This document shows, in pieces, positions 1 to 42,712 of a DNA stretch of 64,000 nt (its first letter is position 1; the number at the start of each line of letters is the position of its first letter). Under the pieces are notes generated by a model that saw nothing but the letters and a program-made list of their open reading frames with translations, was not told the DNA's origin and did no database searches. This DNA is from Megamerina dolium (lineage: Eukaryota; Arthropoda; Insecta; Diptera; Megamerinidae). The stretch spans positions 26,091,073-26,155,072 of the forward strand of contig OY978526.1 in the NCBI GenBank assembly GCA_963854835.1, read 5' to 3'. The position numbers were made by a program, and so were the translations under genes.

Positions 1-37
1 AAAGCAATAGTTCTAACGTAGTTAGTTAATTTCTTAC

Positions 38-2756: not shown

Positions 2757-2965
2757 TTATCTGGTTCCGAACAACAGAGCCCTTGCGACATCCATTTTTC
2801 TAAGCTCTGTCACAGAGCTCTTTTAGAAGCTTATTCATGCCAAATTCTTTCTGCAGGAAGAATTACCAATTGCTTGCCGACAGGGGGGTATCGTTCGAAA
2901 CCAAACAAATATTTTCGGTATTAAAGTTGTGCCAGGGATTGAACCCACGACCTACAGATTAGTGT
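2757..2965 (-). repeat. Truncated tRNA-derived SINE
   Basis: Matches the body of the SINE at 6651-6990 (ggttccgaac start, paired tctgtcacagag segment, GGGATTGAACC B-box complement) but lacks the A-box head. It lies just upstream of the polycystin-like gene. An identical copy sits at 30368-30576. Confidence 0.6.
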
Positions 2966-5900: not shown

Positions 5901-6545
5901 TTGTTTGTCCACCATATAGCAAATTTAGTTCAACACCTACTGCACCAGCCGTCACAAGTCATTTCGAATTCATTATTCATACCAATTCATGACAGTCCTT
6001 TATCATATGAACTATGTGGACGTTTTGAGAATTCCAAACTTTGTTTTGGGAAATTTTTAGAATATAAAAGCTGGAAAACTATTTTACCATATACAAGTAA
6101 GTAAAATAATATTTCTATTTAATGAAATTTGATATGAAAATGATAAATACTATTACTGTCAATAATGTCTCTTATATGCAATCAGATTGAGCTCATTAAA
6201 AGCATATCCAACATGTCGCAATTTAGCTCTTAATTATCTGATAATGATAAGAAGAAACTAAACATCACATACTTGAAATACTAGGCGACTTTACTTATAG
6301 CCTTTTGCATTTACAGAAAATATTTTTCTAAAATGTTGCCAGTTCTCTACATAAAAAATTCTGTATACTTTTGAAATCGCCGCAAATCGGAGACATCACA
6401 TACTTGGACACATCTGATACTAACTTCGCTTTCTTTTTTCTTCTCAGGTTTTTGGATTGGACCTCATTGGAGTTCATGTCTATACTTTATGGTTTAAATT
6501 ACGAAGGTTAATTTTTTTTTTATTTGATTTAAATACCAGATTTTT

Positions 6546-6556
6546 CTATATATATG

Positions 6557-6646
<90 letters not shown>
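6546..6646. repeat. (TA)n microsatellite
   Basis: About 100 bp of alternating TA with a few TG interruptions, in an intron next to a SINE end. The matching tract in the second duplicate (34380-34514) is longer and pure. Confidence 0.95.
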
Positions 6647-6648
<2 letters not shown>

Positions 6649-6650
6649 GC

Positions 6651-6990
6651 ACTTAAAGCCCCAAAGGGCTCATTGGCCCAGCTTCTCTTCCATTACTGTT
6701 GTGTGTCTTAAATTTGGACAGTAATAGAAGGAACATACTTATTTTAACCGGTTCCGAACGGCAGAACACTTGTGACATCACTTTTTCTGAGCTTTGTCAC
6801 AGAGTTCTTTTAGAAGCTTTTTCATGACAAGTTGTTACTGTCGGAAGAATTGCCAATTGCTTGCCGACAGGTGGGTACCATTCGAAAGAAAAATCTTATC
6901 GATATTAAATTTATTATGCATCAGCCGGGGATTGAACCACGACCTACAGATCAGAAGGCGAACACACTAACCACTGAGCTACGGCACCCA
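6651..6990 (-). repeat. tRNA-derived SINE
   Basis: Read on the minus strand from 6990, it begins with a tRNA-like head: TAGCTCAGTGG fits the Pol III A box and GGTTCAATCCC fits the B box. A non-tRNA body follows, ending at the (TA)n tract. The head does not fold as a complete tRNA and has no CCA-proximal acceptor match, so this is a SINE, not a tRNA gene. The same insertion is in the second duplicate at 34515-34858, so it predates the duplication. Confidence 0.75.
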
Positions 6991-9947
6991 CATCTGGTAA
7001 AACTTAACTATTGCCTGGAACTTTTTGAATCCCGGATAGTGTATAATGACCACGGTTGATTATTTTCTAAGCGTAATCACCATATATTCCATATGACGAA
7101 ACGGTTATGACAGCTGTTTAATTTTTAGGGTTTTTCTACCATTATTCGATAGCCTTAGGTCGATAGATAGTCTATTACCCTGAGACTGAGTCATAACCTA
7201 GCCATTGATATTCTGTTCACACTCGATAGAAGTTTAATTCATTTAAATGATCGTCGGATATTCCCCTATAATGAGATCAGACAACTCCACAGCAATTTGC
7301 ATTGTTACTTTTTATCTTAAATTTATTGCCCCGTAGTTAAAAAATCATCTTAGATTTTTACATAGGAAATATGTCAAATTAATCGTTACAAAGTTTATCT
7401 TATCTTTTTTTTTTGTAAAATTGTAAAATGTATTTGTCATTAAATGATTTTAGTTGCCCCAATTTTATATGTCCTGATTTGTGACATTCGCAATGCTTGC
7501 AATACTGTTTACACAAACAACATAACCGTAAATTTCATTGATCAGAGCGCAGATGATTATGAGAAGATGACATTACAGATTGCAGCATCATTTCTTCGAA
7601 CAGATTATGCGGATGGAAATAATTTAATAATGATGGCATCACTCACATATAAGGTATGTGCCTAGAGAGGGTCAATTTTGTATGGCGGAAAAATTATGAC
7701 AAACCTGAACAAAAAATATTATTTCATGGTTTTCCACTTCTATCCATTATATAATTTGAACTATTGTCTCTCTTTCAGCATGGCAATTCAAATTTGTATG
7801 AGAAATTTCGTCAATTTATTCGCAATTTAGTAAATAGAGAAATAAACAAATTGATTGAATATCCCGACGATCAATATTTTGTGTCCAAAACAGATGTAAT
7901 ACAATGTGTGGCACAAATAAAAATGAATTTAGAATTACTTCAGCTGAATGATATAAACACGCTAGAGAGACTACTAGAGGTTATTGAACAAATGACATCC
8001 TCCGATTCAAATGAGATGGACAATCGAGGCTTTTTTGGCATGCAAAACAATTATCAGGAATTTGAAGATCGTTATTCAAGAAAGTCGCACAGACAATCAG
8101 ACACAGCTGTGACCAGTGATTATGTTGACATTTATTTATCATTGATTGAAGACATGTATAGAGCACAATTGGTGGAAAATGTACAAAGCTTTAATTTAGT
8201 TGGTCGCATTGTTCTGTTAATGAGGCGAATGTGTTACAGTGACAATATCTTAACGAAGTACTTTGGTAAGTTTTCCAAATTAACAACATGGTATATGTGA
8301 TATTCACATTTGTTGCTATTACAGAATCTACAATAGCCTCAATATGGGTAGAAAAATACACCGGAAGCTATATTTTGAATAATGAATTCACTATATCGAA
8401 TTCTTCCAACGAACAAATAATAAAGTTAAAAATTATCAATGAACCTCTAATCTCAGAAAATAAAGATTACTGCATAGCTGTTGCTCAATTCCCGGTTGAT
8501 CATTTTACAAAGGAAACAGCTTTGTTGTCTAATATAATGCTTTACGATATGACAGACTTTTCGAGCATTATGGAAAAAACATCCAATGAAGAGAGAAGAG
8601 AATTAAGGCACGCCATTGAAATACAATTGCCCAAAAGATCGACATTTGAAAATATGGTACAATTTTCTTAATAATTATGATATGTTTTAATAACTAATGA
8701 ACATTTTCTCTTCACACAGTGTGTATTTCGTGTAAAAAATCAGTGGTCTTCAGAAGATTGTGAGGTTGCAGCCCTAAATGAATCCTTTGTAACATGTACT
8801 TGCTCACATCTTGGATTTTTCAAGTAAATTCGTACACTAAAAACCATAAACAATTGTAAGTAATAACGTTTATATTTAAATTTATACAGATTATCCAAGT
8901 CCGAAGGGAATGACTTAAGTTATTGGAGCACAAATGGTACGGCTAATTCCACAAAAAATATATTGCCTGCAGTAAATGGAAATACACAAATTCAAGGGAA
9001 TGAATTTACTAAAATTAAGACAGAAGGACTTACTAATCACATGGATTACGAAAACACAAACATTACGAAAGCTGGTACATCCCTTTCTAATGCCATGGTT
9101 ATAACATTAGTTAGAAATTTCATGTTCAGCAATCAAAACAATGATCTTATAACCATTATTATGAGTTACAAATGAACATTTCTATTTGCAGGTTCGATTT
9201 TAAATTATATTACTGTCGCTATACTCTTCTTAGTTGTGCTTGCCACTGTATTGCTAATAGTTTACAGACGTCATCGAAATATGAATGCCAAAAAAAGTGC
9301 AGTTCCATACACGCTAAACACGGTAATGTATTTCTATTTCATGGTCGTAGTAATTAAAAATTCAATCCATCTGTATTAGGATAGATTGCAGAAAGAAATT
9401 TGTTCCCTTTCGAGTTCTAACCGGGAGAAAAACATTTGAATTTTTATTCCATTCCACTCTTAATAGCATTAAGATTGAAGCTATGAATTTTCCTATAATT
9501 TTTCATTTCCTTAATGAAGCCGATTGTAGGTAAATCAACTAATCGTGGGTTTCACATTGTTGCAAAAAGCTTGCAACCGAATCAATCTCCATATAAATGA
9601 ATTTTATTCACATTTCTGTGTTGCTTTTCAAATTTGTTGGACAAAAGTAGAATTTACTCGTATATCCACCCCTTCAATTCTTACCTTAAAAGGAAAATTT
9701 ACAGAGTTGCTTAGACATGAGTTTGAAATATGTAGTAATGAATTCAAAGTATGCCTAATAAAACTCGTTGAAAGTTTGTTTGTATTATTAAATTAAATAC
9801 ATTATTTAATTTCTCTTAATTTACAGAAATTTCCTACGAGACGACGAAAAAGTGGTATCCAATATGCGGCAATACATGATAGCCATCTTCTACATGGAAC
9901 TTTTTAATTTAGGATAGTATTTGCAGCAATGTGTTTTAGGGCAGAGT

Positions 9948-10620
9948 CTAAAATTATACGCATACGCATCAATTCATTGTCAATATCATCAATTCAAATA
10001 GCATCAACCCAAAAACATTAAAATGGTAACATTGCACTAACGCTTTAGCTTCAAAATAATCTAATCATGCCTTAGGTCCACTACATGAAGTTGCAAAATA
10101 TATGCACATTGATACATACACATATATATAATTTGAAGTTACAAAGAATATAATGCTGCCATTTTGGTGCAATTGGTCCAAATTGTTGAAAAATTTTAAA
10201 TAATACAAAAGGTATATTAGATCTATGTGCGGGTCAAATATTTTCGAATAATTGGTAGATAATTCTCAACTTTTGTAATTTTGATAGATGTGATACATTC
10301 GAATATTTTAAAGATTTTTAATTTTCATAAAAGCCCGACTTCACACTAATGTTTGATATCAAACTATAAAACTCACTGATGCCATAGAATTAAACAACGT
10401 TGTTTTCAATAAATATCAAATTTCAAAATATTGAGCAAGTACATCTACCGTCGTTAAAAAATATTCCATAAATTAAGCATGTAAAAATATATATTGCGTT
10501 AACAATTAATAATGTTTAGGATATTGTATTAATTTAATGTCCATTTGGTTATGTTTATATGTTTATATTTATGAAAATCTTTCAAATCTAATTCTACAGT
10601 AGCAACTTAATAAAAAAAAA
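9948..10620. other. Intergenic, no gene seen
   Basis: AT-rich sequence past the right edge of the first duplicate. No open frame or splice pattern is convincing. It contains the first copy of the diverged repeat at 10277-10370. Confidence 0.5.
10277..10370 (+). repeat. Diverged dispersed repeat, copy a
   Basis: About 85-95 bp resembling 14588-14662 in direct orientation. Shared features are ttttgata, gatattttgaagat-like and cataaaag..cgact, followed by tgtttgata.caaa. The two copies bracket the 4.3 kb between duplicate 1 and the Fanzor upstream region. Confidence 0.55.
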
Positions 10621-10740
10621 AGTGTCTCGGTGGCAGCACTGAACAAAGATAAAAACATCAAAACCAAAGGCTACTGTTGTTACAAAAAAAACAACAACAA
10701 ACGACGCTTGATTTCAAATTTCTGCTACCATACATTTGCC

Positions 10741-12135
10741 ATAGTCAGTTGTGAAATGACTGCAGAAAGAGTAAGAAGTGAATAATTGAAAGTGTGTAGT
10801 GCATTGTGCGCAACATTGAATTGCTGCATTATATTAGTGATCTTTGGTAGTAATAATACAAAATTTAAAAGCATTAAAAGACATATAACGAGGTAAGTAA
10901 TTTTGTACAGTTTTCGTAGTTTAATTTATTACCTAAGGGTAATTACGAACCAAATTTAGAAGAATGATTTTATCTAGAAGTTTCTGAGTGCCGATTGTCG
11001 ATTTTGCTCATAATTACATATATTTCTTTTTCTACGAAAGTATCGTATTTCAAAAATTCTTTCTGTATTGAATTTCGGGCATTTCAATTACATTAAATTT
11101 TGTGTGTTTTTGACGCTTTCCAGTAAATGTACATATACATACATATATCTATAAAGACTTCATTGTGTTATTTGTGTTATGTGTTAAAATGCAATTTCAA
11201 TATTTAAAGTGAATTAAATCTAAAATCGCAAAAAACCGTTTTTTTTTATTCAACAAAACAAAATCAAACATAACGGTTCATATGTTCATAACTGTTCTGT
11301 ATCATATCTACGTAGGTACATACATAAGCGATGCATACACAACCTACGCACATGTTCGTAGCTTCGGCTTTATGGCAGCCGCAACCGAAGCTACAGACGA
11401 TGATGTGTATGTACATTAGAGAGCTGCAGAAATGTATTTCTTTTCAGTATTAAGAGAATTTCCAAATGAAAGTAAAGAGAATAGTCTTCTCGTAACTGAC
11501 TTCAATAACAAAACAGATCACATTACGTATATTTTACTCGCACTCTTTTCCATTCTATTTAGATAAGCTATTTACATGTTTTGAGTGTAAAGAGAATTAC
11601 AATATTAGAAAACCGAATAACATTCTTGCAGCTCTTTTATGTACATGTTGCACAAATTGCACACAGTGATGATTGTTGACGATCAAATTGATATTTATTT
11701 AACTTTTTTTAAAGCGTTCACTTTGAAATGTTTATGTTTATACAATCATATTATTAAATTCTATTAATTAATTCATATATTAATAATTATATTGCTATTA
11801 CTATTAAAATTTTTATCTCAAATTTTCTCTTCGTAGCATAATTGATTACCAGTAACTCGACACATTTTTGCATGATTTTGACACACACATTCTCTAGCAC
11901 TAATTGCTCCAAAAACGGCTTCGCGTCCAACAACAAATAACAAGGTAGGTTATTTTATGTAATTTTTGTGCTTTTTAGTATATATTCACTTTAAAATGTA
12001 TATGTTTATACAAAAATCTTACTATTAATAAATTATTACTTACTTATTGCAGCTCGACACATTTTTGCAACAGACAGACACACGTACGTCCACTTGGTGG
12101 CTAAATTGGCTTCATATCAAACAACAAATAACAAG
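10741..12135 (+). other. Candidate non-coding first exons (three donor sites, two repeated units)
   Basis: Three stretches end in good splice donors: near 10892 (ag/gtaagt), 11944 (caag/gtaggt) and 12135 (caag/gtcagt). The last two have acceptors just upstream (after 11852 and 12052). They share ctcgacacatttttgca at the start and aacaaataacaag at the end, so they are imperfect tandem copies of one 80-90 nt exon-like unit. No long reading frame crosses them. They could be 5' UTR exons of an unidentified transcript, possibly of the downstream Fanzor or Gip, or exons of a non-coding RNA. That is inference from splice signals only. Confidence 0.35.
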
Positions 12136-13305
12136 GTCAGTAATTTAGTTGTGGTTTTTAGTAAATGTTCATATTATGTTCCTATTAAGTCATTTTTCTT
12201 TTAAATCAATATATTTAAGGGTTTGCATTTTCCACGTTTAATATGCGTAAAGTGGCATACACTTTCAAATTCAATATTTTAGAAAAATTGGTAACATATT
12301 AAATGCATTTTGCTTTTGATATTTTGAAAGGACGAATAGTAATTACATATATGTAAAAGTTGATTAAAGAATGAAATTTAAGAATATTTTAAAGTGTTAC
12401 TAGAAACAATTAAATCAACGCCCTACATTTTTATAAGAAAAAATATTAAACTTGAATAACACACATTTTTTATTTCATGCATGTGCAATTGATTTTGTTA
12501 TTGATTGCAAATGTTTTCCAATAATTTGTGGCATCGCCATTGTTTTTGATTACTTCAATTAAGCCAAGAGATTTTAAGAGATTTTGAAATTGAAATTCCA
12601 TGCAGATGAAAAACTAAATAGTTGTCACTTGTGGTTTCGAAGAACTTTGTCCGAAAACGTGACTTGTGCTTTCCTTGTATTGAGTTATTACTATATGCTT
12701 TTTAGTTAATTGCATGTTCGAGCAAGTCATTAAAAATCGACTTATTTGGAGTGTGATTTGCAAGAATGCCTAATAGCTTAGACAGACGGCAGCCTAATTC
12801 CGGATTACCGAGTTAATTCGGATTAATTCGAGCATTAATTGCAGCTAATCCGCATTAACTCTATGAGAGAATTCTCAAAATAAAAGAGTATTAGGGCAAT
12901 TTGCGATGACAACACTGCTGAAAAATTTCTATTGTGAATTTTTCTCGATCCATCTTACAAAACAATTGGTGTGTTCGCAACAAAAAACTTTCAACAATTG
13001 TTAACAGTTTTCGACATGAAAAGCATGGCGAAAAAATAAATCCAGCTGTCAATTACGAAGTGTGAATGTCAATTTACAAGTTTCTGATAGTTTTCAGTTC
13101 ACATAGATTCTTGTAGATTTTCTCATATCGAGAGTGACAGATGACAGAAATTGATAGTGATAGTAATGTAAGTGAGCAGACCTAATAAAACAGCAATCAG
13201 CCGTTTCGTTAATCCGCAATTGATTGTGCTTTTCGAAATAAAATGCATTAAAATTAATTTAATAATAAAAAATTGTATTTGAGACGTAAGTTCGTGTTAT
13301 GACAT
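12136..13305. other. Non-coding, AT-rich; one long hairpin
   Basis: No gene recognised. It holds a 16 bp inverted repeat with one mismatch (12810-12825 with 12846-12861) around a 20 nt loop, which could be a small MITE-like or hairpin-forming sequence. Confidence 0.4.
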
Positions 13306-13669
13306 TTAATGTTTGAAAATTATTTCTGTTAAATCTTGTCCGCAATTGGCTCTTATATGATCCACTCTATGGGTACAATTTTTAAGCATCTCGCCGATAT
13401 TTTCATGCTCGCTTCTTATGCAGGAATCAATTGTGGTTTATCGACATAAACCGACATAAAATGCGTTTGATTTTACATACCCTCATAAAAAGTAATCCGA
13501 CGGCGTTAGATCACAAGATCTTGGAGGCCAATTTACAGAACCATTTCTTGATATAATGTTCTCATTAAAACTTTCTTTCAATAAATCGATGGTTTGGCGT
13601 ATTGTGTGGTTGATTTTGGAAATAAATTTCCACAATTTGCCAACGTTGTTCTGGCGTAAATCTATTCAT
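13306..13669 (-). pseudogene. Mariner transposase relic, internally deleted
   Basis: On the minus strand the relic starts MNRFTPEQRWQIVEIYFQN, the usual N-terminus of mariner transposases. After a frame change it continues directly into the C-terminal block NWPPRSCDLTPSDYFL with GYVKS, the region of the last catalytic Asp in mariner DD34D enzymes. It then runs to a stop at 13306. The central catalytic part is missing, there is an in-frame TGA after DYFL, and the reading frame changes at the junction. It is a dead deletion derivative; its ends were not found. Confidence 0.75.
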
Positions 13670-15035
13670 GGTGAAATGTCAATAAATAATGAACACAAGT
13701 GTCATATGAACATGACAGTTCTTGTGCGTGAGATGTCTGAGAATCCCTATTGGAAAAAGTACCTCCTATTGGATCACTCTTTACTACTGTTTCAAGTTCC
13801 AAACTATAAATTTTAAAAGCCAAAATTTGCATATAAAATCTTTTGATTTATTATAATGCGTTTTTTTTTTTTGCTTTTTCGTTAAACAATGTAATAAATT
13901 TTGAAAAATTACAGCATTTTATTTTAATTGAATCGTGCTCGTAAATAAACAAATAGAACATTGTGGGAAATTAATTGCAATCTACAAGAATTTCTTTAGT
14001 TAGGTTTAATGCAATCTTCGTTCTTGTACCACAATTATTGTAATAGTAATTCTAATTGCAAATATTGTATAATTTATACAATACATTATTTTGTAGTCAA
14101 ATATTTGTTTAATGTGAAATGGTAATTTTATTGCGTTATTGAATCACATTTAAGTGAATGTAATGTACAGATTTTGATAAAATTTGTTGTTTTTTATGTT
14201 GGCAGTTATTTTGTAGAATAACATCATGATATCCCCACGCTCATTGTTGCACTTTTGAAATATGGGAAAATGGGGAATAATATAAAGCCTTTTATGAAAA
14301 CGTAGGAAAAACATACTTTTTTTTTTAGGGCCAAATAACCGTGATTCTTGGTGTTAAAGATAATTTATTTATTTAGAAAAAAGAATTTCATTTATGAATT
14401 GTTCTTCGTATTTAAATAAACCGGTATTAAAAATTTTATTGCTGAGTAAAATTAACAAAACTGAGATTATGTATCGTTATGATTAAAATGGGAATATATT
14501 ATTTGAAAAGAAAAAACCAAATGATATGTGGTTTTATTCTTTTAATGATTTATTTAAATGTTTTCACATCCATTCTTAAATCGCAATTTTGATACATGCG
14601 GATATTTTGAAGATTTTCAATTTACATAAAAGTTCGACTACACAAATGTTTGATACCAAATTAGCCAATTTGCAAAAGAGTCCAAAAGGCTCATGAATTC
14701 ATAAATTTTCTGTGATTCATATTTGAGACTCCATTTCCATCCATAAGATCCATTTCCAACGCGACGTAATAAATGAATATATTTTATTGTCAATTTTGAT
14801 AGTTGCACATGTCAAAGTATTGTGCCATTGTACTAAATTATTCTTGCTATTTTTAAATTTTGTTTTAGGAACAACATCATTCCTGCACGTCAGCAATCGC
14901 GTTGCATTTCCCATTTCTCGTTTACATACATTATTATAGTGCATATAGCAGCATTTTTGTTAGTTGTTTTCTGTAGCGTTTTCATATTAAACAGGAGTAG
15001 TAGTGTCGTAGATTGAGTGCCTTTCTCACTCTTCA
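13670..15035. other. Non-coding region upstream of the Fanzor gene
   Basis: AT-rich with no recognised gene. It contains the second dispersed-repeat copy (14588-14662). A possible acceptor (tgttttag/gaac, near 14870) sits about 160 bp before the Fanzor start and could end a 5' UTR intron. No terminal inverted repeat or transposase marking the left end of a Fanzor-carrying element was found. Confidence 0.4.
14588..14662 (+). repeat. Diverged dispersed repeat, copy b
   Basis: Direct-orientation partner of 10277-10370, clearly similar but with several substitutions and small indels. Confidence 0.55.
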
Positions 15036-16781
15036 ATGCCGAAGAGGAAGCAGAAAGAAGATCAACCGCCTACAGAGAAAGTAACCGTAAAGTCCGGATT
15101 CCGGCATTGCTGTAAGAATGATAAGCTGTACGTGAAGATAGTAGAAGATGTTAGAGAAATCTCATCGCTGATAGTGGAGACGTCGCGATATATCCACTTC
15201 AGCTTGATGAAGAGATGGGAAGAGGATGATTTTGCGGCGCCAAGATTCCTCAACTTCTTCTACTGTCTCTGCCAGAAGCATCCGGAAAAGTACGTGTTGG
15301 ACAGCGAGTATGGCCTGTTGAGGAACGACCTACCTCTCTATAACAGCTCATACAGGTCAAACTTGTTTGTCGATGCTGCGAGCACGTACGAGACAATTTT
15401 CCACAACAACATATGGATGCACGCGTACAGCAGAATCCGTAGGTTCCTTAGGCGTGTTGATGGGTCTACACCAGCGACTATTTACAACACGCTAGACTAC
15501 CTGTTTGTGGACAATAGTTGCAAACAGCCTGATGAAACTTTGCTCTCCCAGATGCGAACACATTTGGACTGGGATGGGCAAAAGTTCAAGAACATCAAAA
15601 AGAGCAACGACTATTGGCAGTACATGCGCTTTTTCTACAAACTGCAGCGCTACAATGAGAAGAACAATTTCAAAAACTTTGCGCTGATCCCAATAAAGAA
15701 ATTCGGGGCACATCACGTACGGTATGACTCGTCTCAACTGCACGCCACACTATGTAGTGTTGGTCTGTTTAAGGGTAGCCAGAAAGCGTTTGAGCCTAAT
15801 CGAGACGCTGAATGGCGCAAGTATTTCGAGTTCCCTGAGACCACATCGAAAAAGTTCGGTTATTCAATGATGACGGACGGCGTCAGCATATCATTTTGCA
15901 TGGCTAAGACCCTGCAGGCAGCAGCAGCCACAACATCGCGGGTCAAGTGCCATAAGAAAGCAAATGATTATGCTGGGGATTTGAGCAAAATCCGAAATAC
16001 CGATTACGACATCAAAATCGGTCTCGATCCCGGCCTCCGTCTCATTGTGGGGGGAACTCGGAATGGCTTGCCGCTGAAGATCTCAAATAGCAGGTACCAA
16101 CACGAGGCAGGGTACCATTCAAGAAAGGTCAAACTGCAACGCTGGACACAGACCAAGACTAGCGAAAATATCTCTGAAGAAGAACAGAAGTTGCGGCAGC
16201 TGTCACCATACTCAGCTGATTTTCGCAGTTACACACGATATCAGCTGAGTATATTTGCCGCAAAGCAAGAGATATTTTCGCAGAGACGAGTCACGCGCCT
16301 AAAGCTGCAAAAATTTATATGCACCGAGAAGGCAGCACACCGCATAGCGACAGAGATCATAGGTACGGATTTGAAGAAGATAGCCTCCAATGCGTTGGTT
16401 TGCATTGGATCAACGAGCATCGCGGTGCTGATATAATGTTTGTAAACGAGTTCAGGACCACCAAATTGTGCGGGAAATGCCACGAAGAGAACATCACGTC
16501 CCGATCTCCACACAGGTACCAATTTTGCCCAAATTGCCGTACTTGTTGGAATCGGGACGTCAACGCTGGCGTGAACATCCTGTACATTGGCGAGTGCCTC
16601 ATCGGTGGAATAACGACCCATCAAAATTTCCACCGAAACAACGTAAGTTGAATCTGAAGCACTATTTAGAATCAAACATCATCTAATCAATCACTCTTTC
16701 ATTTCTCTTCATTTCTCTTTTCAGGACGATGAGCCCCCGCCGATGAAGAAGAAGAAGAACAAACCAAGTGCCACTAAGTGA
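15036..16781 (+). CDS. Fanzor (eukaryotic TnpB-type RNA-guided nuclease), frameshifted
   Basis: Fanzors are eukaryotic TnpB homologues that use an OMEGA RNA to cut DNA with a RuvC domain. The frame from 15036 runs 466 codons and includes KIGLDPGLRL, whose Asp (about residue 331) fits RuvC-I. At about 16400-16436 the frame must change by -1. The rest gives EFRTTKLCGKC, then FCPNC and NRDVNAG, fitting the Fanzor/TnpB pattern of TT, four-Cys zinc finger and RuvC-III Arg-Asp. The second exon is phase-correct: donor at 16643, pyrimidine-rich acceptor ending 16724, 82 bp intron, then DDEPPPMKKKKNKPSATK and TGA (16779-16781). That tail looks like an acidic patch plus nuclear localisation signal. The gene is visibly richer in GC than its surroundings, suggesting recent arrival. 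The segment between GSTSIA and VNEF looks short, so a deletion of 3n+1 nt is likelier than one lost base, or it is an assembly error. Confidence 0.85.
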
Positions 16782-16841
16782 TGTGTACTGTGGTCACTTG
16801 ACCCCCTTCATGCATTTGAAGGGGGTTTAAGCTTATGCTTA
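16766..16841 (+). ncRNA. Candidate OMEGA-RNA scaffold / element right end (76 bp, three hairpins)
   Basis: The segment overlaps the last codons and stop of the Fanzor gene. It can fold into three consecutive hairpins: AAGTGA/TCACTT (16776-16781 with 16794-16799), a strong 10 bp stem ACCCCCTTCA/TGAAGGGGGT (16801-16810 with 16817-16826, 6 nt loop) and TAAGC/GCTTA (16828-16832 with 16837-16841). TnpB and Fanzor guide RNAs commonly start in the 3' end of the gene and end at the element's right end. An identical copy lies at 18374-18449. The RNA role is inferred from position, structure and duplication only. Confidence 0.4.
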
Positions 16842-16939
16842 CTGTTTGAATTGCGTGTGGTTTTTGTAATGCTGTTATAGTTGATGTAGAAGTGCTACCA
16901 CCTGTAATGAAGCACTTAGTAATACTGAATTTTTACTAT

Positions 16940-16947
16940 TATCGATA
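16940..16947. promoter_or_regulatory. DRE motif (TATCGATA), Gip promoter
   Basis: Perfect palindromic DREF-binding octamer about 165 bp before the Gip start codon, followed by another cgtcgataa half match. This is usual for Drosophila housekeeping promoters. Confidence 0.55.
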
Positions 16948-17111
16948 ATTCGTCGATAAACAAGTACCGAGTTTGTGAGTAGTTAGTAAAAAAGTGTGAA
17001 TGGAATGATGCATTGGGGACTTACGCTATCATGTATGGCCACTGGGTCAGTAAAAATATAGAGTCAAGTGATTGCAACACTAATTCTTCTGTTCAAGTGG
17101 TTTCATTTAAT

Positions 17112-18253
17112 ATGAATTTGAAATTTGCTGCAAATTTAAACTTCCTTTTTAATGAAGGCGGAGGCAATATAATAGACAAGATAAAATTGGCTGCAAAATG
17201 CGGTTTTCGAGCAGTTGAAATTCCATATCCAGAATGTGATCATAATAGCCTCAGACAAGTAATAGAAGACTCGGGAGTTGAGGTATCGCTTATCAATATC
17301 GCTCTTGGTAATTGTTTGCACAACTTATCTTAGTTCTTAAAAATATATTTTCTCTGGTACTGTATTATTTGTATATAAAATAGGTGCGGATGACTTGTCA
17401 TTTGGAGCAGCAAGCATTCCAGGCAAGGAAGAAATCTTTAAAGAGCATTTAGTTAAAACGGTTCAATTGGCAAAGTCAATTAAATGCAAAAAGTATGTAA
17501 TAATTACTACTCTTATAAATATATACTTAAACCAAATTGCAATTTGCGATTTTTCATATCTATAGAATTCATATAATGTCTGGCAAGATAAAAGGAGAGG
17601 TGGAACTTGCCGATTATCTTGATACTTATAAAAGAAATCTTACATATGCAGCCGATTATTTGAAAGAAGCTGATATAGTGGGTGTTATAGAGCCAATCAA
17701 TAAATATGCATTGCCAAAGTATTTTTTGAACTGTTATGAAAAAGGTAAGTAAAGACCTAAGTGTGTTGTTCTGAAGCATCAATGAAAACTTTCTAAAAAA
17801 ATTCCCTAAAGACCTAGATATTTACAATTTACTGATAGTGGGTTTTATAGGTGCTAATTTTTTACTAAAATAATTTGTAAATTGTTCTTTCTGATTAAAG
17901 CTGTTGAAAAGAAATAAGTAATATGCATATTCTTTTTTTTTTTAGCAACTTCTGTAATTCGAGACATAAATAGTAATCATTTGAAACTGCTAGTAGATAT
18001 TTACCATCTTCAACATATTCGTGGAAACATAACAAACTCATTTAAAGAGATGGGCGACATAATTGGTCACATACAGATCGCTCAGGCCCCTCATAGACAT
18101 GAACCAGATGTAGATGGTGAACTTGACTTTTCTTATGTATTCAATTTAATTAAGGGCAGCGGTTATGATGGTTGTATTGGTTGTGAGTATAAACCGAAAA
18201 CAACCACTGTAGATGGTCTTAAATGGGTGGAAAAATATGGATTGAAGTTATAG
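17112..18253 (+). CDS. Gip: Putative hydroxypyruvate isomerase (Gip)
   Basis: TIM-barrel sugar isomerase family protein (AP endonuclease 2-like fold), expected in the cytosol and taken to interconvert hydroxypyruvate and tartronate semialdehyde. Four phase-consistent coding exons: 17112-17307, 17384-17492, 17566-17744 and 17946-18253. The start MNLKFAANLNFLFNE, the blocks FRAVEIPYP and VGVIEPIN, the metal-site-like DIYHLQHI, HIQIAQAPHRHEPD and the ending CEYKP with GLKWVEKYG are those of the family. I prefer the ATG at 17112 because homologues start there; an in-frame ATG at 17013 would add 33 unrelated residues. The transcript reaches a poly(A) signal (about 18369) where a copy of the Fanzor 3' hairpin segment is inserted. 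Confidence 0.92.
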
Positions 18254-18373
18254 TTTGCTATAAGAAAAAGACGTAAACGGAAATGCAGGAAAATTGCATA
18301 TAAGTATATAGAAAAGTCAGAAAAGTATCAATTGATAATAGTGTGTCAATAGCTATTTCTTAAAGAAAAATAA

Positions 18374-18449
18374 AAGTGCCACTAAGTGATGTGTACTGTG
18401 GTCACTTGACCCCCTTCATGCATTTGAAGGGGGTTTAAGCTTATGCTTA
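18374..18449 (+). repeat. Second, identical copy of the Fanzor 3' hairpin segment, in the Gip 3' end
   Basis: All 76 bases equal 16766-16841, same orientation, 1608 bp downstream and without any nuclease gene. It is bracketed by cttaaagaaaaataaaa on the left and cttaaagaaaataaaa on the right, a near-perfect direct repeat that looks like a target-site duplication. It begins directly after an AATAAA signal of Gip. Confidence 0.85.
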
Positions 18450-18866
18450 AAGAAAATAAAACATATAAACATATATTATATGTACATATAAACTTTTATG
18501 TAAAAATTTAATTTTGTAAATAATTTAATTTTTTTTTGTTTATAAAGGACCAAAAAGTCAAAATTATAATAAATAAAATACTGTTTCTTTTGAAATTAAT
18601 GAGTGTCTTATATTGTTTTTGTTTTTTGTAATTTTTTATCTTGTATTTGCTCAAATTAGTTTAGATGTAAAAACAATTTATTTCCTTAAATCGAACGTTT
18701 CGTGGTTTACATTGTTTACATACTTCAAAGTACTACTATAAAGTATTAATTTTAAATATTATATGTTTACTATATGTTTATTACGATGTTTTTCATTTCG
18801 TTAATTTATACGTTTATATTCACTTTATTAACTGATCGCTGGTTTATGTTTTTCTATGCACAAAAT
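18450..18866. other. Intergenic between Gip and a gustatory receptor
   Basis: Very AT-rich spacer between convergent 3' ends. No gene seen. Confidence 0.5.
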
Positions 18867-21800
18867 TTACATTTTCCTTTTTGTAATGGATGACTTTAAC
18901 GATTTTTCTGCAATGATGCTCAATTTGAATTGTAGTAATACGATCAAATAGATCGCAATTGTAGAAATAGTCTGAAAGAGAAAAAGAATATTATCAAATT
19001 GTAAATTTAAAAGTAATAAAGAAATTACTTACCGCTGTGAGCAGTTCACGATTTATTAATCCATACCCTTGCATGTTTACTACGGGTGGATTAAGTTCGA
19101 TGGCTGAAATGAAAATGTCAATCTCTCGTTGGGTTTGTATGTCTATCCGTAAAAGATCCACTGTCAGAAGTGTATCCTGCACACCCTGTGCCATAGCTGA
19201 AGTTGCACTATGTGCACAATCGCATATAATGAACATCAATGTTGCACAATAGATTGTCAGGACGACTAGTCCCAATACTTTAAGCGAAAATCCCGAGTCA
19301 AATATTTCCGATAGAGCTCCATAAGCACCAATTGTAATATTTATAGACCTAGTTTATAAAAAAAAAAAAAATGTAATGAAACATAATTAAAGACATAAAT
19401 TAGGTTCGTGAACATTGAATATTTTAACCACTTTCTTAAGCAGGGGAATATTTTTGTACTTTATAATCGCAATCGAATATATTTATTCTGTTTTTACTTA
19501 ATTTTTAGTCCAATTGAATGCCTCATATGCAATGCTCAACAATTTAAATTAATATTACTTTTTCAAATTCTTGTACTTGCCTCACCCTCAAGGATTACTC
19601 ACATTACTGACTCTCAGCAATCAGTGATATAACAATGGCGCTAGTCATTTGCTCTACATACGTGTACATTACATAAAACTTTTATTCGAAATTAGAACAA
19701 GAAAAAAAGTATCATACAGGCTTTAGAAAGGACTTCAGAAAAGTATTTTAAAATGTCGAGAACCAATTTTTAAAACTTTCTTCAGAATTTCAGATTTCAG
19801 ACTAGTTTTTAACATTTACATAGATTTTGCAATTACATTATTACACAAATTCAGGGTAAACTTTTTAAAAATTCCGAAATAAGTACTTACATAAATAAAC
19901 TATATGTGGAATATGTTCGAGAATAGGCATTTCCAAAAGTTTGCAGTATCTCGCTAAGGTTTAGCCATAAAAGTCTATATTGAGAAATCAGTTTAGCAGT
20001 GCATTCAGTTTTAATATCCTGCAATGGAATTTGTAAAAATCTCATAAAATTTACAACATCCCATTAATATTTACTTACCCGCTTAAGGCATACGGATAAA
20101 CTAAGCGATGCTCTTTTAATTGCCTTTGTATTAATATAGAACAAAGCTGCATTCATATTAATCATAGTGATGATATGAAAATAAGCTGTTGTGTGCCAGA
20201 GTAAAAATCCTATAATGTAATGAGTTTTATATATTGATTAAATCAATATTTACTTATCCTCACCATCCAATAGACGACTTAAACTATATAAAAATGCTAT
20301 CGATAATAGTACACAGCCGATAAATAGTATAATGATCAGGTAATTCAATCGCGGGAATATGAGCATTATTCCTGTTACTCTATAATATCGAACCTAATGT
20401 AGAAACAAAATATGAATTTGTTTTGAATACTTTTACTCACGGTACAGGAAATGGGTAAAATTTGCAAGTAGTAAAATAGTTGGCAAAATTACTCGCTCTA
20501 CCTGAAAAGATCCCCACATCGTTTTATATGTGGCAACGTGATTAGCAACACCCCAACCAACATATGGAATCCAAAAATGTGGCACCAGAAATATAACAAA
20601 GATAACTGCATAAATATATTCGTCAAATTCTGTGGTTGTTTGAATAATTTTGATTCTCTCATAACCAACACGCAGCACCAAACTAGTTGTAAATATATAA
20701 AGTCCGAACGCATACACCATTTGTGAAGATTTCCAATTGAATGTTACAACACCAGGTGCTGACCGAACTACTGGCATTACTCCAAGGAAAACAAATAATT
20801 TGAGAAGAAGCTGATGATCGCGATAAAACTGGAATCGAAAATAATTATAAATAGAGCAGCTCAATAAGGTGAATCAAGATCAAGAGTGCTCGAAAATTGC
20901 ATTTCAAAGAAAAAAAATATTTATATTTCATTTATAACACCTACAATCAAACAATACCTAACTAAATACCCCTAATTCTGGCACTTTTTGGAGTTTAATC
21001 CCGCCAAACAATTGCAATTCTAAAGAAAAAAAATAGAAGAGTACATGCTACTTTAGTGCTACTATAAAATAATATCGTAGAAGATGGTGAAAATATTGAC
21101 GACAAATCTTAAATTAATTATTTTCAATGTCAATGAACTCTTAGATACTGTGAACAAAATATAAATATTAGACATATTATATGGGCTTTCCCGATTTTTG
21201 AAAGCCCATATAAATATGTTCAATGGTTGGCTGCGCATTGCTGCTGTTCTGAAAATAGAACATACGGAATTAGTTATCGCAGCAGCCTTGGGCGTTCTAA
21301 TACTCCGTCTATCTACTCCTAATCGTGCTGTAATTCACCCACAAATCTACAGCACTCTCTTAAGCCTTTTAAGATCTAAAAGCAAAAACGATTTTTTCCG
21401 TAAATGCGCATACGGAACAGTAGAAGACTCTGTAATAGCCAGTGTAGGTTCACTACCCACCAAAGGAGCCTCTGCGTTTGAAGTATCCATAAGGAACGAA
21501 GGTTTCTCTTGACGGGTATGTCTTCTTGTCTCGGTTTTAAGTATGCTCAGTATTTAAGTAGAACCTGAGGCGTTCAGAACAAATTCCTTTACCGTGGAAA
21601 GTCCATGATTACTTCCTCAGAAGGGCAAAAGTCAGGAAAAATCCATTAAAATCCGACGAATATTTTCCTTCGGCTGCAAACTCCCCAATTGGAATGGTAA
21701 AGCCTTTCCCACAATCCAAAGTATCCAAAGGCTTTATGTAATATCAAGTCTAAAACCGTAATGTTATGTTTAATGAAGGGTCACCTCAGTCACCATGGCT

Positions 21801-23783
21801 GTTTCTAGCTATATTAAGAAAACCCGCCAACGCAGATACAGTATTGTGCAAAACTTAAGCAACTGGCATAGTGCTCTCATTGATTTCAAATTTACTAAAA
21901 AATAAAAGCGCTTAGATTGAATGTTTTAATATTTATTTGTTCCTTCATTAAATACATAAAAAACAACAACAACAAAAGTTCGGTATTCTTACGAAATTAA
22001 CTGTAAACAACAAAAAACAAATTATACTCATATTTCATCTGTGCAAAACTTAAGCAACTTTTAATATTTTGTGTAGTATCCCTTATTTTTAATTACTGCA
22101 GCACACCTTTTGGGCATAGAAGCTACTAATTTCGTTAAATATGATTTATTTATATTTTCCCATTCAGTTTTGAGGCCTAAAAATAGTTTGTCTTTATTTT
22201 TAAAGCGCTTTGAGCCCAAGCCTCGCTTTAAAATTGAAAACAAATTTTCAATAGGATTCAAGTCGGGCGATTGTGCCGGCCAATCAAGCACTTGAATCTT
22301 ATTTGACTGTAGCCAATCCGTCACAAACTTCGATGTGTGTTTCGGATCATTGTCGTGCTGAAACACCCATCGAAGTGGCATATTCCATTCCGCAAAAGGC
22401 AACATTGCAGTTTCTAAGATGTCCTTATACATAAATCTGTCCATTTTGTGGTCAATCCTATGCAACGGACCAAGTCCACTCCCCGAAAAACACTCCCACA
22501 CCATGACGTTCCCTCCTCCATGCTTTACAGTCTTTTTACAGTATCGCGGATTGAGGCCTTCACCTTTCGCATGTCGAACTCTTATTATTCCGTCTGAATT
22601 AAATAAATTTATTTTAACTTCATCACTGAACAGTGCGCCAAACCACTTTTTTATGGACCAGCCCACGTACTTCTTAGCAAATTCAAGTCTGGAAAAAAAA
22701 TATATGTTGTTGTTTTTGTTTTGAAGGCATTAAACCAAACATACCTTTTTTTTACATGTTTTGGTGTAAGCATTGGTTTTTTTACCGCTTTGTAGCTTTT
22801 TAAACCAACTTTAATCAAATGCCTTCTTACTGTGCTTGAATCGACATTTAAATTAAGAGTATTTACTATATCTTTTGAAGACATGAACGGATTTTTTTAA
22901 TCAATTTTTTAATTTGAATAGCTTCCCTATAAGAAATTTTTTGGGGTCTTTCTCCTGAATTTCGATCTGTAACGCTACCAGTTTTTTCAAATAATCGTAT
23001 CCATCTTGATATCATAGATTTGTTGATATTTAATGATTTTGCAATGTCATTCTGTGGTTTTCCTTCCTTAAATAACGATATAACCTTCATCTTAAATTGA
23101 TGACTATAACGGACACGTTGCATTTTGGATTTCAATATGTTTGAAAGAACTGTGCGCTAAGAAAGACTTTTTTGTACTGAGTTAGATCAATGTTAATGCA
23201 CAAAGCAGAAAAAACTCCGAAAAAGATCCGTTATTTTCTGAACAAAGAAATATCGAACACCTTTGCACTCCGAGTTGCTTAAGTTTTGCACAGATGAAAT
23301 ATGAGTATAATTTGTTTTTTGTTGTTTACAGTTAATTTCGTAAGAATACCGAACTTTTGTTGTTGTTGTTTTTTATGTATTTAATGAAGGAACAAATAAA
23401 TATTAAAACATTCAATCTAAGCGCTTTTATTTTTTAGTAAATTTGAAATCAATGAGAGCACTATGCCAGTTGCTTAAGTTTTGCACAATACTGTATATGC
23501 ACTCGCTGTGGTTTAAAAAAATACCATATCGTACTTTATAAAAATAACAACTATGATGAAGGATTCTGCAGATTGTTACCGAATATAAAAGACGAAATTT
23601 CAAAACTAATGATGATTTTAAACTTACTTGATCATAAATGTCAACAGTAATGCCATGGGTGGATTTTAATTCAATTCGTTTTTCTCTCTGTTCAAATTTT
23701 TCCAAATTCTCAGGATTTTTGTCAAATATTAAAATTTTATTTTTCGATATTTTTGCAGTGGATTTCATGTCCTCATGCAACAT
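18867..23783 (-). CDS. Sugar-type gustatory receptor, third member, complete
   Basis: Paralogue of the duplicated receptors, about 430 residues. Exons: 23783-23628 (start MLHEDMKSTAKI), 20828-20502, 20393-20264, 20209-20079, 20018-19891, 19348-19033 and 18971-18867. Family blocks are FYRDHQLLLKLF and GVMPVVR, PHFWIPYVGWGVA, RYYRVTGI, RTYSTYSLFM, NPPVVNMQGY with INRELLTAV, and a final membrane exon (TISTIAIYLIVLLQF). Phases agree at all joins. The 2.8 kb first intron holds a Tc1 transposon; the coding exons look undamaged. Family knowledge says sugar sensing in taste neurons; the exact ligand cannot be read from sequence. Confidence 0.88.
21179..21211. repeat. Perfect 12 bp inverted repeat
   Basis: atatgggctttc (21179-21190) and gaaagcccatat (21200-21211) with a 9 nt spacer, in the receptor intron. 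The next roughly 600 bp are less AT-rich and may be a decayed mobile-element fragment of unknown kind. Confidence 0.6.
21839..23493 (-). mobile_element. Tc1-like transposon, family B (1655 bp, long IR/DR ends)
   Basis: Bounded by TA dinucleotides (21837-21838 and 23494-23495), the Tc1 target duplication. The ends are near-perfect inverted repeats of about 220 bp (21839-22059 and 23274-23493). Each carries the 16 bp motif caaaacttaagcaact at its outer and inner edge, an IR/DR arrangement. It is inserted in the first intron of a gustatory receptor; the very similar long arms suggest a young insertion. Confidence 0.93.
22061..23135 (-). pseudogene. Tc1 transposase, family B, one frameshift, one likely intron
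   Basis: The helix-turn-helix part begins at 23135 (MKSKMQRVRYSHQFKMKVIS). At about 22886-22892 a run of seven A breaks the frame; eight would restore it. A 56 bp stretch (22744-22689) has GTATGT and a pyrimidine-rich CAG end. Removing it joins KHVKKR to LEFAKKYVGW in frame, so it is probably a spliced intron. The catalytic domain has SDEVKINLF, QHDNDPKHTS and SPDLNPIE with 34 residues between the second Asp and the Glu (DD34E), and ends NKGYYTKY at 22061. Apart from the homopolymer error it is intact. Confidence 0.85.
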
Positions 23784-25010: not shown

Positions 25011-25302
25011 GGAACCAAAAAAGCTAAGCTTCATGCCTCAGGTATTTTTTTTTTTAGGCATAGAACTTTTCTTTGCAAGTGAAATACAAAAAAAAAATGA
25101 AATTGTCAATATTGTGGTTTTATTAGCTTGTAAATTTGAATGCATTTAGTGTTTATAAAGAATTCCGGGAATATGGCTACCTCGACTGTGTCGTTCCAAG
25201 TTTGTATCGGGAAATTTCAGTCCTCGCTCATGCTCACTTCTATAGCGACGATAATCCATTAAAGTGAACGTAAACATAAATTAGCCCATCGTATTACGTA
25301 TA

Positions 25303-26953
25303 CAGTGGCTCCCAGCTTATTTCGTACAGTGACAGTTTAAAAATTGCTGCAGTCGTAATTCCTAATATAGCAAAAATTTGAACAAAATATAAATGCCATT
25401 TTAGAAAGGAAGGTTTGTTTTTTATTTTCCAAAATTTACTTTTTCAAAATTTTAGTGTTTGACACTATAAAAAAATAAAATAAGAAAAAAATAGGAAAAT
25501 TCATGCCACAGCTTATTTCGTACAGTCTCTTTAAGTTCAAACTAAAAACAAAGTAAGTTGATTTTAATATTTAGTTGACATCCCTTAGCGTTAATGACAG
25601 CCTGGAGTCTATTTGGCATTGAATCCACCAATTTTTGAGTGATGTCTGGTGTGATTTTTTTCCATTCTTCCATCAGTACCTTCTTTAGGTCTTGCTTATT
25701 AGAAATCTTGTGTGTTCTTATTTTATTGTCCAAAATAGACCAAAGATTTTCAATCACATTCATGTCAGGTGACTGTGGTGGTGGAGACATCAAGTGTGGG
25801 CAGTTCCAAATAAGCCAAGATTGCACAATCCCAGATTTATGTTTTGGGTCATTATCTTGGTAGTACCGAAATTCTTCCCGCAAACCCAGTTTGTCTGCAC
25901 TTTGAAGTAAATTGTTTTTCAGAATCTCGAGGTACTTCATTTTGTCCATTGTTTCCTCAATAAAAACCAATTCACCTACTCCGGCTGCTGACATACAGGC
26001 CCAAACCATCACGCTACCGCCACCATGCTTCACTGTGGGCTTAAGGTTCTCCTTGTTTAGCTCGGTATTCGCTTTACGCCAAACATATGACATTCCGTCC
26101 GAGCCAAAAATATTAAACTTAGACTCATCCGCGAAAATAACGGTATTCCAGAACGCAGGAGTATTAATAATATGCTCTTTGGCGAAGTCAAGTCGGCGTT
26201 GTATATTCATTTTCGAAATGAATGGTTTCTTTCGGGCTACTCGACCGTTCAAGTCATGATTGCGCAGCACACGTCGGACAGTTTCAGCACTGGATGATTT
26301 TCCTATTTCACGCTGAACATCTGCAGCCAACTTCGGAGCGGATAACTTTGGATTTTTCTTAATTTTTCGTACAATATAACGCTCGTCTGAAGCGTTGAAA
26401 ATCTTATTAGGTGCTTCTCTGCCCTTGTTCTCCAACCGATTTTCGCGAACGAAGCGTTGAATGATGTATTGGACAGTTGAGGCACTTAAATTTGTCATTT
26501 CAGCAATTTTTCGCACACTCTGACCTTTCCTAAAATGGTTAATTACCAGTTTACGCTGTTCCATCGTTGTACGACGACCCATAACGCTAAATGTTTAATT
26601 TACAGCACTTTAACTATTTAAAATAATAATAATAAAAATTGTTATAATAGTTAAAAAGGTTCAAAAACTCATACAATTCAAAAAAACTTTGTAACTGCGC
26701 GGCAGAATGAAACTTACTTACATTGAAGTTTGTGTACGAAATAAGATGTGAGCTGAAAATCAGCTGATCAATAGTTTTTCTCTCTTGCATGACAAAAAGA
26801 ACAATTTTTGGGGTTCCCCGTTTTCTTATTAGGTTTACTAAACACATACATAGACATCTACATTCAAAACTTATTGATAAGTTTTTTAGTTTCGATGTTA
26901 CAGCCATGTACATAAAAATATATACACTGTACGAAATAAGCTGTGAGCCACTG
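25303..26953 (-). mobile_element. Tc1-like transposon, family A, copy 1 (1651 bp)
   Basis: Flanked by TA (25301-25302 and 26954-26955). The ends read cagtggctc.cagcttattt followed by cgtacagtg in inverted orientation. Inner repeats of cagcttatttcgtacagt lie near 25506-25526 and, inverted and weaker, near 26731-26754, again an IR/DR layout. A second copy in opposite orientation is at 42713-44362. Confidence 0.93.
25542..26582 (-). CDS. Tc1-like transposase, family A, near-intact
   Basis: A 346-codon frame starting MGRRTTMEQRKLVINHFRKG, with paired helix-turn-helix regions in the first 120 residues. The catalytic triad is FADESKFNIFG, YQDNDPKHKSG and SPDMNVIENLW with 34 residues between Asp and Glu (DD34E). 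Compared with the other copy, one base is missing near the end (around 25576), so the C-terminus reads GCQLNIKINLLCF instead of GCHTKY. The catalytic core is untouched; activity is possible but unproven. Confidence 0.92.
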   Translation of the reverse strand: MGRRTTMEQRKLVINHFRKGQSVRKIAEMTNLSASTVQYIIQRFVRENRLENKGREAPNKIFNASDERYIVRKIKKNPKLSAPKLAADVQREIGKSSSAETVRRVLRNHDLNGRVARKKPFISKMNIQRRLDFAKEHIINTPAFWNTVIFADESKFNIFGSDGMSYVWRKANTELNKENLKPTVKHGGGSVMVWACMSAAGVGELVFIEETMDKMKYLEILKNNLLQSADKLGLREEFRYYQDNDPKHKSGIVQSWLIWNCPHLMSPPPQSPDMNVIENLWSILDNKIRTHKISNKQDLKKVLMEEWKKITPDITQKLVDSMPNRLQAVINAKGCQLNIKINLLCF

Positions 26954-27581
26954 TATGCTGGTCAGATGTACACATAAAAAACCCCAAATTTTTGCATCAT
27001 TAACAGTTTTGTTTTTTGTTAAAATTAAATCTTATTTTTATTTTATATATCAATTATTGCAGTTTAATTTTTTGAAGTTCCTATGTATTTTAAGCGCCAT
27101 TATTGTGGATAATATTATCTCCTGTAGATAATTTATTTCTCGAATAAAGTCAATTAACCAGCTGTAACATAATCAACAATTACTGCATCTTCATATTCAT
27201 TTGTTTATATCTCGAAATGTTCATAGCTTACCTCATTATGTGAATCATATGTACATATACATATGTTAATATCCGATTACTTTTTCCTCTGAACTAATTA
27301 AGAGAGAATTTAAACTGAACTAAAACCAGTAAGTAAATAGTAATAGTTGAAATTGACTGCAAATGAATAAAATATGTATTTAATTCAAGTGTAGTTATGT
27401 CCTTCCATATAAAATATATTGTATGTAGTAGGACATGTGAAGTTTTCTTATGGGAAGACAGTAGTACATTTGTTTATTGTTAGGCACCCATTTCAGCGAA
27501 ATCATAAACACTGAGAGGTGGTTTAATTAACCCCAATACCACCCTTGTCTGTACCACATAACATTTGATATTGATTTTATT
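26954..27581. other. Intergenic between Tc1 copy and second duplicate
   Basis: AT-rich. The last exon of the gustatory receptor copy 2 should lie here. The only splice-compatible short frame (acceptor near 27128) does not resemble the family's final membrane exon, so no exon is claimed. Confidence 0.45.
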
Positions 27582-42360: not shown

Positions 42361-42712
42361 TTTCTATAATAATCACAATTATGAAAACATGCGCGTCTAT
42401 AAATAGCTTCGGTTTTTCATGTTTTATATCATATTATTTATGTTTATGCGTGCGGTGACCCAAAGATTGAAGAAATGAATTGCATTGATTGCAATATACA
42501 TTTGTATGAATATAAATATTTATATAATTCAGTATATGCTCATATTACATATTACAAATGAATACGACTCACTCCATCCACCAACATCAAGTAACTATAC
42601 ATTTGACACAAATGTATCTATATTTCTATACATATTTCATTTGTTTTAATGCATGCATTACATTTTTCGTTCATCTCCCTATCATCACCTCGTTTGTTTA
42701 AACATACTTATA
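42361..42712. other. Intergenic, promoter side of acid phosphatase
   Basis: AT-rich; no gene or clear core promoter seen before the Tc1 insertion. Confidence 0.4.

What the first reader, a model, noticed from the sequence alone, without database searches (positions are those of the whole stretch)
16766..18449. Fanzor 3' hairpin segment duplicated, identical, at the poly(A) signal of Gip
76 bp covering the Fanzor stop codon and three hairpins recurs 1608 bp away without the nuclease. The second copy lies in the 3' end of a metabolic gene, between near-perfect 16-17 bp direct repeats differing by one A. Candidate explanations: retroposition of an OMEGA-RNA-like transcript with target-site duplication, a MITE-like derivative using the same right end, or local gene conversion. 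It would give a nuclease-free scaffold followed by new sequence in the guide position.
Basis: partly seen in the sequence, partly recalled or inferred. Interest (0 to 1): 0.9.

Follow-up and report, generated by a model that had tools for sequence, protein, structure and literature searches.

The report
Stray right end of Fanzor1 transposon
A 76-base hairpin stretch near an insect metabolic gene is a leftover end of a multicopy jumping gene that carries an RNA-guided DNA cutter; it was most likely not copied from the neighbouring cutter gene, and only an RNA test can say whether it still makes a guide RNA.

Summary
Window 16766-16841 and 18374-18449 are identical over 76 bp and fold into three abutting stems; the second copy sits between 17/16-bp direct repeats differing by one A. 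The whole genome changes the reading. The 76-mer is the right end of a dispersed Fanzor1 element with variable left ends. Of 36 sites matching its last 29 nt, 29 have other element DNA upstream and 7 (6 independent) have only the 3' end. Copy 2 was probably not made from copy 1: a sister Gip block, 99.9% identical over 4,990 bp, carries the same solo end with no Fanzor beside it. Best explanation: an extreme 5'-truncated, 3'-intact insertion with target duplication, like the Chlamydomonas CRe-1/2/3 Fanzor1 elements. Retroposition is disfavoured (no tail, no donor guide sequence). The adjacent Fanzor frame is broken by a 70-bp deletion not shared by 21 other loci measured; 9 of 38 sequences examined hold a frame open to the splice donor, so a protein able to use the solo scaffold may exist. 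A scaffold role is possible but untested. New variant of a known kind.

The parts
9947..16841 (+). Fanzor1 transposon copy (about 6.9 kb); homology to other copies starts at 9947 here, right end at 16841; sits at the junction of a tandem duplication
   Evidence: BLAST of this region against 8 extended family copies starts at 9947 in L033, L036, L039, L041 and L045 and at 9962 in L034; staircase of left ends; common right end
15036..16642 (+). Fanzor1 exon 1, interrupted by a 70-bp deletion near 16422
   Evidence: ORFs 15036-16436 and 16220-16651 in different frames; TNB domain PF07282 E 2.8e-10; anchor spacing
16643..16724 (+). intron of the Fanzor gene (GTAAGT...TTTCAG), inferred from sequence
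   Evidence: TTTCAG motif in the same stretch of 32 of 37 fetched loci
16725..16781 (+). Fanzor exon 2, DDEPPPMKKKKNKPSATK-stop, lysine-rich tail
   Evidence: sequence
16766..16841 (+). copy 1 of the 76-bp right end: three stem-loops, putative OMEGA-RNA scaffold, ends at the element's right boundary
17112..18253 (+). Gip-like gene (TIM barrel), presumed first ATG to stop, with introns
18359..18375 (+). left target-site repeat of copy 2, with AATAAA
18374..18449 (+). copy 2: solo right end (3'-end-only insertion) in the 3' end of the Gip-like gene
18446..18461 (+). right target-site repeat of copy 2 (one A shorter), with AATAAA; the would-be guide position starts at 18450

Best explanation
Copy 2 is a solo right end of a multicopy Fanzor1 transposon. 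The element spreads by copying DNA from a fixed 3' end, and the copying often stops early or runs on at the 5' side (inferred, by analogy with the Chlamydomonas CRe-1/2/3 Fanzor1 elements). Here copying took only the last 76 nt, stopping at the foot of the first of three stems, and inserted into the poly(A) region of the Gip-like gene, duplicating 15-17 bp of target. By parsimony this happened before the Gip block was tandemly duplicated, so it is independent of the Fanzor element now 1.6 kb away. Shown: identity, fold, repeats, dispersed family, common right end with variable left ends, and presence in both Gip copies. Inferred: the 3'-anchored copying mechanism, and that the 76 nt is an OMEGA-RNA scaffold.
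For: 40 genome places were scored for the 76-mer (of 155 candidates); 7 are identical over 76 nt. In the 30 loci fetched with it, 25 end exactly in GCTTA, and the 500 bp behind the end is unrelated in every pair except L003/L005; L026/L030 share a 148-bp repeat further out. Of 36 sites matching the last 29 nt with 3 mismatches or fewer (control pattern 0), 29 have other element DNA within 700 bp upstream and 7 do not: L003 and L005 (one event), L059, L070, L071, L072, L075. Left ends form a staircase. L033 (C2:84.8 Mb) has a 25-bp exact Gip stretch just outside its left end, and L034 (C2:26.3 Mb) 98 bp at 98%, so flanking DNA seems to have travelled with an element. Target repeats: copy 2 and L039, GATAAGTCTTAYATA, 14 of 15. 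Sister Gip block: 5 differences in 4,990 bp, solo end present; a sensitive search of 9.7 kb to its left finds no Fanzor coding sequence, only three short pieces like window 12770-13220, 7 kb or more away. Precedent: PMC3627910 Results, CRe elements 5'-truncated, 3' intact, TSDs about 7-19 bp.
Against: A clear target duplication was seen in only 2 of 16 copies or solos tested; for L041 and L053 the fetched left side was short or not the true end, and L035's 9-bp match is at control level. The true left end and any transposase of the family were not found; a search for a Helitron domain did not complete. L039's repeat is not preceded by a T-rich tetranucleotide as in CRe. The 5' breakpoints of copy 2 and of L059 coincide with the first base of stem 1, which a random truncation would not predict. 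The 3'-end-only sites were found by their right end, so pieces from elsewhere in the element would have been missed. There is no empty Gip allele in this genome: both Gip 3' ends carry the insertion.
Confidence: 0.6

Rival explanations
1. Retroposition: a processed scaffold RNA was reverse-transcribed into a nicked Gip 3' end, primed by pairing of its 3' CUUA with the target, giving a 15-17 bp target duplication.
For: The copied unit coincides with the folded RNA domain; target duplication; 4-bp CTTA match at the right junction and 2-bp AA at the left; L059, a second independent solo, starts at the same base.
Against: No poly(A) or other tail. None of the donor's downstream guide sequence is present, although mature RNAs in S. 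punctatus extend 14-15 nt past the scaffold (PMC10432273 section 7). Other solos start elsewhere (about 39, 41 and 50 nt long). Family copies mostly keep the intron (acceptor motif in 32 of 37 loci), though this says nothing about a scaffold-only RNA.
Confidence: 0.14
2. Repair of a staggered break in the Gip 3' end with templated filler copied from some Fanzor right end through short shared bases.
For: Microhomology at both junctions (CTTA, AA); direct repeats expected from filled-in overhangs; the element next door sits at a tandem-duplication junction, so repair errors happened in this region.
Against: The inserted DNA of copy 2 ends exactly at the element's right boundary and at the foot of stem 1, which arbitrary filler would not be expected to do; other 3'-end-only sites exist, although these were found by their right end, so their sharing it is no test.
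Confidence: 0.16
3. Internal-deletion or left-end-deleted remnant of a once full element in Gip.
For: Internal-deletion derivatives exist in the family (L024/L053).
Against: The 17/16-bp repeat directly abuts the 76 bp on both sides, so a later deletion would have had to stop exactly at the repeat.
Confidence: 0.06
4. Local gene conversion or duplication from the Fanzor copy 1.6 kb upstream.
For: Identity and closeness.
Against: The sister Gip block has the solo end and its repeats but unrelated DNA in place of the Fanzor; five further identical 76-mers exist in the genome, the sister's included.
Confidence: 0.04

Closest known systems
CRe-1, CRe-2, CRe-3 Fanzor1 elements of Chlamydomonas (Helitron2 group; Bao and Jurka 2013, PMC3627910)
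   Same: Fanzor1 gene; copies with intact 3' end and variable 5' truncation; variable-length target duplications in part of the copies (7-19 bp there, 15-17 here); occasional extra DNA at the 5' side.
   Different: Here an insect; no Helitron protein or left-end structure shown; target duplications in 2 of 16 tested copies; T-rich tetranucleotide rule not clear; truncation down to the scaffold alone.
Ghost Spu-1 elements of Spizellomyces punctatus (Saito et al. 2023, PMC10432273)
   Same: Scaffold present without the protein; conserved unit of about 75 nt.
   Different: Spu ghosts keep both inverted repeats and about 550 nt; the copy here has only the right end.
Insect-virus Fanzor1 elements, for example of SfAV (Yoon et al. 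2023, PMC10711439 section 27)
   Same: Three-stem guide-RNA scaffold at the right end, guide taken from the flank; insect context.
   Different: Those elements have clear terminal inverted repeats and short TSDs (TTAN with 13-bp repeats in PMC3627910); no matching left repeat was found here, though 25 of 30 fetched right ends finish in GCTTA.

Membership tests
Fanzor1 protein | D-X(125,275)-[TS][TS]-X-X-C4 zinc finger-X(5,50)-RD (PMC3627910) | tested here: met
   Copy L033: D331, TT498 (166 between), C4, RD530. In the window copy the motif is split between two frames.
Fanzor1 protein | conserved G and E (G500, E536 in SPu-1) | tested here: met
   G458 and E495 in L033, 37 apart, matched by eye to SPu-1's spacing of 36; 70 bp between them is missing in the window copy.
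Fanzor1 protein | position in the Fanzor1 clade of a protein tree | not tested
Fanzor1 OMEGA-RNA scaffold | structured unit at the 3' end of the gene, three-stem shape, next to variable flank | tested here: met
Fanzor1 OMEGA-RNA scaffold | compensatory changes across copies | tested here: inconclusive
   27 rows, 14 distinct; 1 pair changed on both sides; 127 of 500 shuffles do as well.
Fanzor1 OMEGA-RNA scaffold | small RNA bound to the protein, with guide | not testable with these tools
   needs small-RNA sequencing
Helitron2 (CRe type) | 3' ends intact, 5' ends variably truncated | tested here: met
   the sites were found by their 3' end
Helitron2 (CRe type) | variable-length TSD in truncated copies | tested here: inconclusive
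   clear in copy 2 and L039, not in the other 14 tested
Helitron2 (CRe type) | asymmetrical terminal inverted repeats, 5' hairpin, RepHel protein in autonomous members | not tested
   true left end not reached; family search PF14214 unanswered
Retroposed copy | 3' tail (poly(A) or template tail) beside the target duplication | tested here: not met
   duplication present, no tail
MITE | both element ends with inverted repeats | tested here: not met
   no left end between repeat and stem 1 in copy 2; inverted right end not found in 12000-15040 (169 of 200 shuffles score as high)

The most novel reading that the evidence does not exclude
The element's copying tends to stop at the feet of the scaffold hairpins, so it seeds the genome with scaffold-only copies, each with a new guide taken from its landing site. 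Fanzor proteins made by intact copies elsewhere use these as trans-acting guides. The Gip copy would then aim the nuclease at the uninterrupted Gip allele and drive its own spread by repair.
Probability: 0.1. Interest if true: 0.85.

Novelty: new variant of a known kind. Interest (0 to 1): 0.45.

Why it matters
It gives an insect genome in which a Fanzor1 family has many copies, nine examined loci with a frame open to the splice donor, and several 3'-end-only copies. That makes two open points testable: how Fanzor1 elements without a known transposase copy themselves, and whether protein-less scaffolds feed guides to Fanzor proteins in trans. It also shows that closeness of two identical segments can mislead: the neighbour was probably not the source.

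Tried and rejected
Local copying from the Fanzor 1.6 kb away: rejected by the sister Gip block. A left end as inverted copy of the right end near the Fanzor gene: best match no better than shuffles (169 of 200 reach it). Target repeat around the Fanzor unit of copy 1: not found at the ends; the right flank's best upstream match, at 12150-12165, beats most shuffles (8 of 200 reach it) but lies inside the element. TTAN target duplication as in insect-virus Fanzor1 elements: 25 of 30 right ends finish in GCTTA, but no matching left repeat was shown; L071 has TTAA on both sides of a 38-bp insert, and L059 a weak 10-bp repeat further upstream (score 7), both possibly chance. Clusters of solo 5' breakpoints at stem feet (copy 2 and L059 at position 1; L070 and L071 near position 36; L072 at position 27; L075 longer and diverged): suggestive, too few to test. 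Covariation: inconclusive. Structure prediction of the 466-aa frame without an alignment: mean pLDDT 32.5, not used. PDB sequence search: only weak matches, the relevant ones to TnpB-type and related nucleases in the zinc-ribbon part. Viral contigs: no relative, no hairpin match. In the automatic tally L003 and L005 were labelled exon2+RE because their A-rich repeat aligns with the exon at 7 of 11 positions; I count them as solo ends since the repeat matches the right flank far better. A note of mine gives the Fanzor deletion as 67 bp; the anchor spacing gives 70.

Full report
What is there. The 76-bp duplication is exact and maximal. It spans the end of the Fanzor gene's second exon and its stop codon, and folds into three stem-loops that abut one another and fill it from end to end. 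Copy 2 lies about 120 bp past the stop codon of a TIM-barrel gene (Pfam AP_endonuc_2; the name Gip is recalled). It sits between 17- and 16-bp direct repeats that differ by one A, far above controls (score 14; 600 placed controls up to 9; 400 shuffles up to 11). Each repeat holds an AATAAA, so the insertion doubled a poly(A) signal motif.

The gene beside it. The window's Fanzor frame is open to 16436 and continues in another frame (16220-16651) with the TNB zinc ribbon. The spacing of two anchors around this point is 43 bp here, 113 bp in 19 of 21 other loci that could be measured, and 85 and 70 bp in L049 and L065. Of 38 sequences examined (37 fetched loci and the window), 13 held the start motif that I searched for, and 9 of these are open from the ATG to the splice donor. 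Copy L033 meets the published Fanzor1 motif: D331, TT498, C4, RD530, with G458 and E495 (motif from PMC3627910, Results section read).

Genome-wide. The window lies at C2:26091073-26155072 of a 500.5-Mb assembly. The 76-mer has 155 candidate places, of which 40 were scored; 7 are identical over all 76 bases. There are 36 sites with at most 3 mismatches to the last 29 nt (control pattern 0), 30 of them on C2. I sorted all 36: 29 have other element DNA within 700 bp upstream; 7 do not. These 7 are copy 2 and its twin L005, L059, L070, L071, L072 and L075. Of the 30 loci fetched with the 76-mer, 25 end exactly in GCTTA; L018, L026, L027, L028 and L029 do not. Their 500-bp right flanks are unrelated to one another except L003/L005; L026 and L030 share a repeat further out.

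Copy 2 is probably independent of copy 1. C2:26083684-26088673 matches window 16849-21838 with 5 differences in 4,990 bp and no gap. It holds the same gene with the same solo end and repeats (L005), but other DNA where the window has the Fanzor element. A sensitive search of C2:26074001-26091072 with the whole element finds, besides the solo end, only three pieces like window 12770-13220, 7 kb or more to the left. By parsimony the solo end is older than the tandem duplication and was not copied from the present neighbour; later conversion between the two blocks cannot be excluded. The genome search found only these two Gip 3' ends, both with the insertion, so there is no internal empty site.

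How the family moves. Left ends differ from copy to copy while the right end is shared. L034 begins beside 98 bp of the Gip gene, and L033, 58 Mb away, begins beside an exact 25-bp Gip stretch, so flanking DNA seems to have been carried along at the 5' side. L039 has a 15-bp target repeat, 14 of 15 alike, with about 130 bp behind it that L041 does not share. No clear repeat was found for copy 1, L033, L034, L035, L036, L041, L042, L044, L045 and L053 or for the solos L059, L070, L071 and L072; L075 was not tested. The picture resembles the Chlamydomonas CRe elements. I do not file this family as Helitron2, because its terminal structures and RepHel could not be tested.

Why not retroposition. 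There is no tail, and the 14-15 nt that mature scaffold RNAs carry beyond the scaffold in S. punctatus (PMC10432273 section 7) is absent. The family keeps its intron (acceptor motif in 32 of 37 loci; misses are L053, L057, L058, L059, L066), which speaks against mRNA copying of the family but not against copying of a scaffold RNA. In favour: the unit equals the folded domain, and L059 starts at the same base. I keep 0.14 for it.

Scaffold role. Insect-virus Fanzor1 guide RNAs have a three-stem shape and extend about 15 nt past the target duplication (PMC10711439 section 27). The 76-mer fits that shape. Covariation among 14 distinct sequences (27 right ends aligned) is inconclusive; the gaps in the alignment fall in loop positions except one in stem 3 of L019 and part of the stem-1 tip in L059. 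Whether copy 2 is transcribed into a guide RNA is unknown. Its would-be guide is AAGAAAATAAAACAT.

Literature seen: PMC3627910 (outline and Results), PMC10432273 (passages and section 7), PMC10711439 (passages and section 27), PMC11423790 (passages), plus listings of five searches, in which I saw no listed title on a scaffold-only Fanzor copy in a fly; the listings were capped. Bao and Jurka list Mayetiola destructor with 13 Fanzor1 families. That the host of this window is a fly is my reading of its genes, not a call.

Noticed in passing
window 1-9955, 16849-37815; C2:26083684-26091072: A 17-21 kb tandem duplication (Gip-like gene, chemosensory receptor and more), about 97-99.9% identical, has the 6.9-kb Fanzor element at its junction: homology stops at 9955 and resumes at 16849. 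The element may have caused the duplication.
   Followed up: partly
window 16842-16853: The dozen bases after the Fanzor right end differ at several positions from the sister block, although the 4,990 bp from 16849 on have only 5 differences; this looks like error-prone joining.
   Followed up: no
L034/L085 (C2:26347000 region), L033/L080 (C2:84822000 region): Fragments of the Gip first exon (98 bp and 25 bp) lie directly outside the left ends of two Fanzor copies 58 Mb apart.
   Followed up: partly
C2, whole contig: 30 of 36 right-end sites are on one contig (C2, 95 Mb of 500 Mb); the cause (local hopping, low recombination, sex linkage) is unknown.
   Followed up: no
C5 and C3: 24 of the 40 places scored with the left-end query match only its later part (from base 31-36 on), at 89-95%, 21 of them on C5 and 3 on C3: a related family or shared module.
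   Followed up: no
window 25300-26956 and 42710-44365: Two inverted mariner-type copies 98.7% identical; further transposase frame at 46373-47347, a LINE-type frame at 47393-50383 and a Gypsy-type element at 59698-63854 (types recalled from the frames).
   Followed up: no
window 38340-38553 (-): U3 snoRNA, Rfam RF00012, 118.5 bits.
   Followed up: no
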